From: Yersinia enterocolitica
Lineage (GTDB): Bacteria; Pseudomonadota; Gammaproteobacteria; Enterobacterales; Enterobacteriaceae
NCBI GenBank assembly: GCA_002082245.2
Contig: NBTC02000002.1
Coordinates: 2,480,001-2,544,000 of the forward strand
Length of the DNA: 64,000 bases
Direction: 5' to 3'
Of this stretch, positions 26,427 to 27,140 are shown in pieces. The notes below the pieces were generated by a model that saw only the letters and a list, made by a program, of their open reading frames with translations, had not been told where the DNA came from and did no database searches. The position numbers and the translations under genes are program-made. Numbering within the stretch: the stretch's first letter is position 1; each line of letters opens with the position of its first letter.

Positions 26427-26614
26427 TATACCCGTCATACTTCAAGCTGCATGTGCGTTGGCTACATTCAATCACCCGAATCACTTACTTATGTAAGCTC
26501 ATCGAGATTAATGAGGTTCACCCTACGGGCTAGCATAAATGCTGTTCAAATCGGTTCCGGACCTATTTGTCTCTCGCTTGCCGCCTTCCTGCAACTCGAA
26601 TTATTTAAGGTATA
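26427..26614 (+). repeat. ERIC element, long form, in secM-secA
   Basis: A 188-bp copy with terminal TATACCC/AAGGTATA, the ERIC core CACTTACTTATGTAAGCTCA and the same inner segment (CCCTACGGGCTAGCATAAATG onward) as the copy at 10226. Its right end (26601-26614) runs into the secM coding sequence and supplies its stop codon. In the secM-secA transcript it would form a large hairpin. Confidence 0.88.
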
Positions 26615-27140
26615 GGATAGGAGGCCCGGCACGGATGCCTTGCACTTGTGCAAGCCAGAGTCCAGGTTTGTGTAACGAAAGAACAGGCCGCTTAACTTGC
26701 TCGGTGTAACGAATGATAGCCGGTGGCTTAAACTCATGTGTCAACAGCGCATTGAGGGTATCCAACAGTGCAAGCTGCTGAATTTGTGATGGCTGAGCTT
26801 GCTCGACTGCTGTAACTTCTTGCACCCGCGCATAAGCGACCTGAGGTGCCAACGCAAATGAGAGGTGACGAATAACCGTGCGCAGTGCATGCTGTTGCCA
26901 GTAGTCTACGCTGAATGAAGGACGGCGATGCATATCATGCAACAATGCCAAACTGTTAAAGTTTGTCACACCGTAATTCTGACGGCTTTGGCTTGATGAT
27001 GTATTCGGTATTGCAGTTTGATCTGGAACGCCAGACAGGTTTGATGGCACGCCAAGACTCGCCGCTACCATCCCTAACAAGAGATGCGGCCAGAAATAAC
27101 GTCTACCAAATTGTCGCCAACGATTTAGAATACCGATCAC
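26601..27140 (-). CDS. secM: Secretion monitor SecM with translation-arrest peptide
   Basis: Periplasm-targeted arrest peptide whose stalling senses Sec activity and controls secA translation. The 179-residue product starts with the family N-terminus (GILNRWRQFGRRYFWPHLLL and a signal segment) and ends with the arrest motif WLAQVQGIRAGP followed by PILYLK and stop. The Trp, Gly-Ile-Arg-Ala-Gly-Pro are conserved, but the Phe five residues before Trp in E. coli is His here, and Ile after Trp is Leu. The GTG at 27140 (aligned with the E. coli start) is preferred over an in-frame ATG at 27218. The last four codons and stop come from the ERIC end. Confidence 0.92.
   Translation of the reverse strand: MIGILNRWRQFGRRYFWPHLLLGMVAASLGVPSNLSGVPDQTAIPNTSSSQSRQNYGVTNFNSLALLHDMHRRPSFSVDYWQQHALRTVIRHLSFALAPQVAYARVQEVTAVEQAQPSQIQQLALLDTLNALLTHEFKPPAIIRYTEQVKRPVLSLHKPGLWLAQVQGIRAGPPILYLK

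What the first reader, a model, noticed from the sequence alone, without database searches (positions are those of the whole stretch)
26427..26627. ERIC element fused to the end of SecM, directly after the arrest motif
The ERIC end supplies the last codons and stop of secM (26601-26614), 7 bp after the final Pro codon of GIRAGP (26622-26624). In E. coli secM and secA are close and SecM stalling opens a hairpin that hides the secA ribosome binding site. Here 257 nt, mostly a 188-bp foldable repeat, lie between. A stalled ribosome would sit at the edge of the ERIC hairpin, so the repeat may have become the secretion-responsive switch, or coupling may be lost. The sequence arrangement is seen; the regulatory effect is inference.
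Basis: partly seen in the sequence, partly recalled or inferred. Interest (0 to 1): 0.75.

Follow-up and report, generated by a model that had tools for sequence, protein, structure and literature searches.

The report
Mobile repeat inserted into secM's end
A common small mobile DNA repeat has landed in the last codons of the secretion-sensor gene secM in one Yersinia lineage, giving the protein a new tail and stop while leaving its stalling motif and the hairpin before the next gene intact; there is no firm sign that it became a new switch.

Summary
In this unnamed Yersinia a 188-bp ERIC element (26427-26614, minus strand) sits 7 nt after the last Pro codon of SecM's GIRAGP motif. It supplies the last codons (Y-L-K) and the stop, and leaves 257 nt before secA. 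Of 25 Yersinia genomes, 25 have SecM and 2 have the insertion: the window's and a close sister, with a 127-bp ERIC at the same TA. The other 23 show the empty site. ERICs are common in this genome, and at least one other gene (psd) also gets its stop from the same ERIC end.

The proposed switch is not supported. The hairpin at the secA ribosome binding site is conserved in the genus and untouched. Even without the ERIC its core starts 49-54 nt past the arrest Pro codon, out of reach of a stalled ribosome. Predicted Shine-Dalgarno accessibility does not depend on stalling with or without the repeat, though the test has low power (weak E. coli control). The secM ERIC is no better conserved than 5 of 22 other shared ERICs. 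SecM stays under purifying selection. Most likely this is a tolerated MITE insertion that lengthens the leader. Its effect on SecA regulation is untested; one weak hint of a switch appears in the sister only.

The parts
26601..27140 (-). secM coding sequence (179 codons plus stop, from the GTG that matches the 177-179-aa close relatives; the open frame runs to 27218)
   Evidence: Pfam SecM PF06558 E 3e-59; frame and tail; relatives' lengths
26622..26639 (-). codons of the arrest motif G-I-R-A-G-P
   Evidence: sequence; IRAGP printed for all 74 related loci (one of the six patterns that found these loci lies just before it)
26427..26614 (-). ERIC element, 188-bp long form, inserted at a TA just before secM's old Ser codon and stop
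   Evidence: own-genome copies, empty sites, inverted ends, fold
26601..26615 (-). SecM tail L-Y-L-K and stop; all but the first base (26615) are ERIC end or its target TA; Y-L-K and the stop are new
   Evidence: same YLK tail in G011 and in protein record P0001
26511..26571 (-). internal block of the long ERIC form, absent from the sister genome's ERIC at the same site
   Evidence: alignment; boundaries near 44-104 of the element recur
26421..26426 (-). relic of the old secM end, AGC TAA, now downstream of the ERIC
   Evidence: the same six bases end secM in 8 of 23 ERIC-free Yersinia genomes; other last codons or stops in the rest (counted by eye)
26354..26399 (-). hairpin covering the secA ribosome binding site; core GGCCGCC/GGTGGTC (26383-26377 / 26371-26365), outer part reaches the AAGAGA
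   Evidence: 97.6% of 340 cells paired in 20 distinct Yersinia sequences, 46-53% when slid; predicted folds
23629..26343 (-). secA
   Evidence: Pfam SecA domains

Best explanation
An ERIC MITE inserted at a TA in the last sense codons of secM, most simply once in the common ancestor of the window's genome and its sister. It changed SecM's tail from four residues after GIRAGP (four in 22 of 23 ERIC-free genomes, eight in one) to six (P/T-I-L-Y-L-K) with a new stop inside the element. It lies after the arrest motif and before the secA hairpin, so it left both intact and was tolerated. A stalled ribosome should stop at the ERIC border and a terminating one should cover the ERIC's left end; secA is then translated from its own, unchanged hairpin-bearing leader more than 200 nt further on. 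Shown: insertion, site, sharing by two genomes, intact motif and hairpin. Inferred: single origin, that the insertion is near neutral, and that whatever coupling Yersinia has between SecM arrest and secA is unchanged or weakened rather than rebuilt around the ERIC.
For: Empty and filled sites. 2 of 25 genus genomes filled, same TA in both. ERICs are abundant in the genome, and a second gene, psd, ends in the same ERIC end. SecM still under purifying selection between the two filled genomes (dS 0.093, dN 0.005). RBS hairpin identical in the sister and nearly identical in relatives. Stalling has no predicted effect on Shine-Dalgarno access with or without the ERIC. The secM ERIC's low divergence (1/126) is matched by 5 of 22 other ERICs shared by the same two genomes.
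Against: The insertion is present in two genomes with synonymous divergence of 0.09 (secM) to 0.21 (secA) and has not been lost in either. In the sister (short ERIC) the cost of opening the secA start codon is 1.1-1.65 kcal/mol higher when a ribosome is at the stop than when it is at the arrest site, above all 23 ERIC-free relatives (mean 0.0, max 1.08); this is the direction of a switch, though absent in the window itself. Fold predictions ignore co-transcriptional folding and proteins, and the E. coli control was weak.
Confidence: 0.72

Rival explanations
1. The ERIC uncoupled secA from SecM: arrest still happens but can no longer influence the secA ribosome binding site, so secretion feedback is lost or much weaker in this lineage.
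For: Spacer from Pro codon to secA ATG 278 nt (217 in the sister) against 89-94 in 23 relatives. In 9 of 23 relatives, but in neither ERIC genome, the lowest-energy fold without a ribosome pairs the arrest codons with the secA hairpin (counted by eye), a contact a stalled ribosome would break.
Against: Predicted Shine-Dalgarno access is much the same with and without stalling in the relatives too, so no loss can be shown. The arrest motif is intact and SecM shows no relaxed selection.
Confidence: 0.15
2. The ERIC works as an mRNA-stability element whose folding is set by where the SecM ribosome stands: folded when the ribosome is parked at the arrest site, opened when it runs to the stop inside the left inverted repeat.
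For: Yersinia ERICs at 3' ends of genes are reported to alter transcript levels through a ribosome-exposed RNase E site (PMC2229807 section 10; PMC10969869 passage). The stop lies inside the left repeat. In the sister, expected repeat-to-repeat pairs fall from 19.9 (no ribosome) to 13.8-10.4 (stalled) to 0 (terminating).
Against: The effect is orientation dependent (PMC2229807). The RNase E site is placed in the 3' repeat (PMC10969869), whereas here the AU-rich AAAUAAUU is in the 5' repeat, and this orientation is the minority one right next to stop codons in this genome (3 against 9 within 10 nt, of 49 elements; but 20 against 13 within 80 nt). In the window the repeat-to-repeat pairing is low in every state (1.9, 0.1, 0, 0).
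Confidence: 0.08
3. The ERIC has become the secretion-responsive switch of secA: its right inverted repeat, freed when ribosomes terminate in the left repeat, pairs with the secA start codon, and SecM arrest keeps it locked in the ERIC hairpin.
For: Sister genome only: expected pairs between right repeat and secA start region 0.08, 1.7-3.0 and 6.9 with no, stalled and terminating ribosome; start-codon opening cost up by 1.1-1.65 kcal/mol.
Against: Absent in the window (0.71, 0.44, 0.45 pairs; change -0.26 to +0.19 kcal/mol). One of several measures tried, found after the fact. 30S-region change only 0.3-0.6 kcal/mol. No special conservation of the element.
Confidence: 0.05

Closest known systems
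ERIC (enterobacterial repetitive intergenic consensus; IRU; RU-1) of yersiniae
   Same: TA target duplication, inverted ends, hairpin fold, dozens of copies, location at a gene's 3' end
   Different: 188-bp long form; the table in PMC2267715 (passage) gives 69-127 bp for Y. pestis ERIC. Overlaps the stop of secM in the orientation that is rarer right next to stops here
ERIC/RU-1 fusions to gene ends (Delihas 2007, PMC2759123, passages, e.g. ECA3499 amidase)
   Same: MITE supplies new C-terminal residues and stop beyond the conserved part of the protein
   Different: Only three new residues and the stop; the target is a regulatory arrest peptide whose 3' end is also an mRNA leader. 'SecM' and 'SecA' do not occur in that paper's main text
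SecM-secA arrest-peptide leader (E. coli)
   Same: SecM family protein with GIRAGP directly upstream of secA; hairpin at the secA ribosome binding site
   Different: Spacer 278 nt instead of 76; H and L at the positions of F150 and I156; the hairpin core lies far beyond a stalled ribosome's footprint, in ERIC-free Yersinia too

Membership tests
ERIC | insertion at TA with duplication of TA | tested here: met
   filled against empty sites
ERIC | terminal inverted repeats and single-strand hairpin fold | tested here: met
   30-nt arms, 70%; z -2.88
ERIC | dispersed multicopy | tested here: met
   63 matching pieces in the own genome; matches in 5 of 5 other Yersinia genomes searched
ERIC | canonical length about 127 bp | tested here: not met
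   188 bp here, a long form with a 61-nt internal block that other copies in this genome share; the sister's copy at the same site is the 127-bp form. Described as a long-form ERIC; the length is the only feature missed
SecM | Pfam SecM match and position directly upstream of secA | tested here: met
SecM | C-terminal GIRAGP with W eleven residues before its P | tested here: met
   ..W-L-A-Q-V-Q-G-I-R-A-G-P
SecM | F150 and I156 of the E. coli arrest consensus (FxxxxWIxxxxGIRAGP, PMC10987492 passage) | tested here: not met
   H and L here; F is in none and L in all of the 25 Yersinia sequences (by eye). IRAGP, Pfam match and locus are kept, so I still call it SecM; whether arrest strength is the same is untested
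SecM | arrest in vivo and release by secretion | not testable with these tools
   needs an experiment
E. coli-type SecM switch | stalled ribosome opens the stem that hides the secA Shine-Dalgarno | tested here: inconclusive
   no predicted effect in window, sister or 23 relatives; E. coli control mean -1.62 but range -4.41 to +1.21
ERIC mRNA destabiliser at gene ends | orientation with the RNase E site in the 3' repeat | tested here: inconclusive
   AU-rich repeat is on the 5' side here and the orientation is the minority one within 10 nt of stops; the original paper was not held

The most novel reading that the evidence does not exclude
A mobile repeat captured a secretion sensor: ribosomes that finish SecM stop inside the ERIC's left repeat and free its right repeat to cover the secA start, while ribosomes arrested at GIRAGP stand just outside and leave the ERIC folded, so arrest raises SecA through a structure made of transposon sequence. 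The sister genome's short ERIC shows this in prediction; the window's long form does not.
Probability: 0.05. Interest if true: 0.8.

Novelty: new member of a known kind. Interest (0 to 1): 0.3.

Why it matters
It is a natural insertion mutant of a well studied kind of arrest-peptide leader: the arrest motif is kept while the distance to the gene it should control is tripled. Comparing such leaders could show how much of secA control depends on spacing. It also suggests that the E. coli picture, a stalled ribosome directly opening the stem, does not fit the anatomy of Yersinia secM-secA leaders in general.

Tried and rejected
Special conservation of the secM ERIC: 1 mismatch in 126 aligned positions against 27/600 and 15/600 in the flanks looked like selection. 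Among 22 other ERIC loci shared by the two genomes 5 have 0-1 mismatches, so it was dropped. Local promoter for secA between secM and secA: no sigma-70-like site reported there on the minus strand. Terminator in the ERIC: none reported. Covariation on a Yersinia plus Serratia alignment (A3): by eye the stems are out of register because loop lengths differ; not used. Covariation within Yersinia is weak (one double change; 54 of 500 shuffles reach the observed values), so the hairpin rests on pairing conservation, not on covariation. In one search all 83 loci folded gave some stem-loop in the 37 nt before the Shine-Dalgarno region; no shuffle control was run for that.

Counts left out: spacing could not be measured for 4 of 74 loci (L055, L056, L090, L098). 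In one search, L135, L152 and L160 aligned over only part of the ERIC (80, 66 and 16 positions) and are counted among the 22 controls. rests on mechanical ORFs of 100 aa or more and on 49 elements (distinct ones among the 60 loci of the best hits), not on all ERICs of the genome; its orientation bias holds within 10 nt (3 against 9) and 20 nt (6 against 10) and reverses within 80 nt (20 against 13). One search found 734 proteins but lists 120; the other 614 tails were not seen.

Literature: De Gregorio 2005 on Yersinia ERICs was not held; what I say of it comes from PMC2229807 (section 10 read) and PMC10969869 (passages). From recall of its abstract, elements next to stops are mostly in one (B) orientation; one search agrees with such a bias close to stops, and secM's copy seems to be in the other orientation. 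Searches for SecM with Yersinia/secA/intergenic (no paper), ERIC with SecM (22 papers, 10 listed, none of these on this by title) and SecM with Yersinia (17 papers, none on this by title) found no report of this insertion in the held library.

Full report
What is there. On the minus strand of the window secM (Pfam SecM, E 3e-59) precedes secA. The SecM frame reads ..W-L-A-Q-V-Q-G-I-R-A-G-P-P-I-L-Y-L-K-stop. The last Pro codon of GIRAGP is 26624-26622, the ERIC begins at 26614, the stop is 26603-26601, and 257 nt follow before the secA ATG at 26343. The element is 188 bp with inverted ends and a strong fold (MFE -54.4 kcal/mol, z -2.88, 2 of 200 shuffles as good). A search of the window's own genome gives 63 matching pieces, the element itself included, with another full-length copy at 92% identity; a search with a short copy gives 42 pieces. 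In both, 40 of about 240 first-look candidates were scored, so these are lower bounds.

Origin. SecM was found in 25 of 25 Yersinia genomes. In 23 of them there is no ERIC: the distance from the Pro codon to secA is 89-94 nt, and 22 of the 23 have four residues after GIRAGP, mostly A-N-(L/F)-(S/I), while one (L109) has eight. Only the window's genome and G011, the genome with the most similar SecM (98%), carry an ERIC, at the same TA..CTA|TACC...GGTATA|AGCTAA.. against ..TTAAGCTAA.. in Y. alsatica. Of 74 named loci from Yersinia, Serratia, Rahnella and other Enterobacterales, 70 gave a spacer and none exceeds 142 nt. One of the 120 listed proteins of a search of 5.8 billion (P0001, source label lgn, no organism given) also ends in IRAGPTILYLK, a further record of the fused tail that may or may not be independent of G011. 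The tools did not name the window's species. None of the 14 named Yersinia records has the insertion.

Age and selection. Between the two filled genomes secM (up to IRAGP) differs by 11 synonymous and 2 non-synonymous changes (dS 0.093, dN 0.005) and secA's first 1200 nt by 51 and 1 (dS 0.211, dN 0.001). So the insertion predates their split, or was exchanged between them, and SecM has stayed under purifying selection. The ERIC at secM has 1 mismatch in 126 aligned positions. This is not special: of 22 other ERIC loci shared by the two genomes, 5 have 0-1 mismatches. One structural change separates the two: the window has the long form, G011 the 127-bp form without the internal block.

How usual is such a fusion. 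In a sample of 49 ERICs of this genome, an ORF of 100 codons or more stops within 10 nt of, or inside, the element in 3 cases at the end that faces secM and in 9 cases at the other end; within 80 nt the counts are 20 and 13. One of the 3 is psd, phosphatidylserine decarboxylase (Pfam E 5.6e-61). Its last codons and stop also come from the ERIC (..E-A-V-P-T-A-I-P-stop), and the sister's copy of that site also reads into an ERIC stop (by eye). Gene-end fusions of ERIC/RU-1 were described by Delihas (PMC2759123, passages), and ERICs at 3' ends of Yersinia genes are reported to change transcript levels (PMC10969869, passage; PMC2229807, section 10). The secM case is a new instance of a known kind, in the orientation that is less common right next to stops.

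Does it change the secA switch. In E. coli a stem-loop hides the secA Shine-Dalgarno and the stalled ribosome disturbs it (PMC10987492 and PMC4737659, passages). In Yersinia a hairpin with core GGCCGCC/GGTGGTC ends just before the AAGAGA of secA, and its outer part pairs with that AAGAGA; in 20 distinct Yersinia sequences 97.6% of 340 cells pair, against 46-53% when partners are slid. The shuffle control is not significant (54 of 500), because the sequence hardly varies. This hairpin is identical in the window and G011. In the 23 ERIC-free genomes its core begins 49-54 nt after the Pro codon and its outer arm some 16 nt earlier, well beyond the 9-10 nt that a stalled ribosome covers (footprint recalled). 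So even without the ERIC the stalled ribosome should not open it directly; in the window the core begins 238 nt after the Pro codon, in G011 177 nt.

Folding test. I compared the cost of opening the Shine-Dalgarno window in the free RNA and with everything up to the stalled ribosome's edge removed, over four footprint edges and four contexts. E. coli K-12: mean -1.62 kcal/mol (range -4.41 to +1.21). Window: +0.12 (range -0.46 to +0.87). G011: +0.14 (range -0.79 to +1.01). The 23 ERIC-free genomes: mean +0.45, sd 0.54, none below -1. The method shows the expected sign in E. coli but weakly, and shows no E. coli-like response in any Yersinia. It therefore gives no support to a switch gained or lost through the ERIC, and it cannot exclude one.

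A hint against my own reading. In G011 (short ERIC) a terminating ribosome, which covers the left repeat, frees the right repeat to pair with the secA start region (expected pairs 0.08 without ribosome, 1.7-3.0 stalled, 6.9 terminating). The start codon becomes 1.1-1.65 kcal/mol harder to open than in the stalled state, more than in any of the 23 ERIC-free genomes (mean 0.0, max 1.08) or in E. coli (-0.16 to +0.37). The sign is right for a secretion-responsive switch. But it is absent in the window (-0.26 to +0.19), small for the whole 30S region (0.3-0.6), and was found after several measures had been tried. I rate it at 5%.

Verdict. A precise MITE insertion between two functional RNA/peptide elements, probably tolerated because it touches neither. 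The effect on SecA regulation is open and testable; the novelty is modest.

Noticed in passing
window 26511-26571; L002 (1501-1702) against L211: An internal block of the long ERIC form (61 nt at secM, about 79 at L002) is present in the window's genome and absent in G011 at orthologous ERICs that are otherwise nearly identical (1 mismatch in 126; 0 in 122). At L152/L214 the block is in G011 instead, in more diverged copies. Long-form matches are frequent in G000 and G011 and rare in the listed part of four other Yersinia genomes. Block insertion, precise loss or gene conversion is open.
   Followed up: partly
L152 590-1510: psd, a conserved gene, also gets its last codons and stop from the left ERIC end in this genome.
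   Followed up: partly
window about 10217-10424 and 10425-10579: Two ERIC-like elements lie next to each other in opposite orientation; Rfam tp2 (RF02030) matches 10113-10242 and overlaps the start of the first.
   Followed up: no
window 63502-63749: Two identical 124-nt copies in perfect tandem; a third, 67% alike, at 10433-10556 in the second ERIC-like stretch, so they may be ERIC related.
   Followed up: no
window 6539-7444: Three direct repeats of about 300 nt (66-72% identical to the first).
   Followed up: no
23 shared ERIC loci, G000 against G011: In 17 of 23 shared loci (secM's included) the ERIC diverges less than its 600-nt flanks, which may mean constraint, gene conversion or exchange acting on ERICs in general.
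   Followed up: partly
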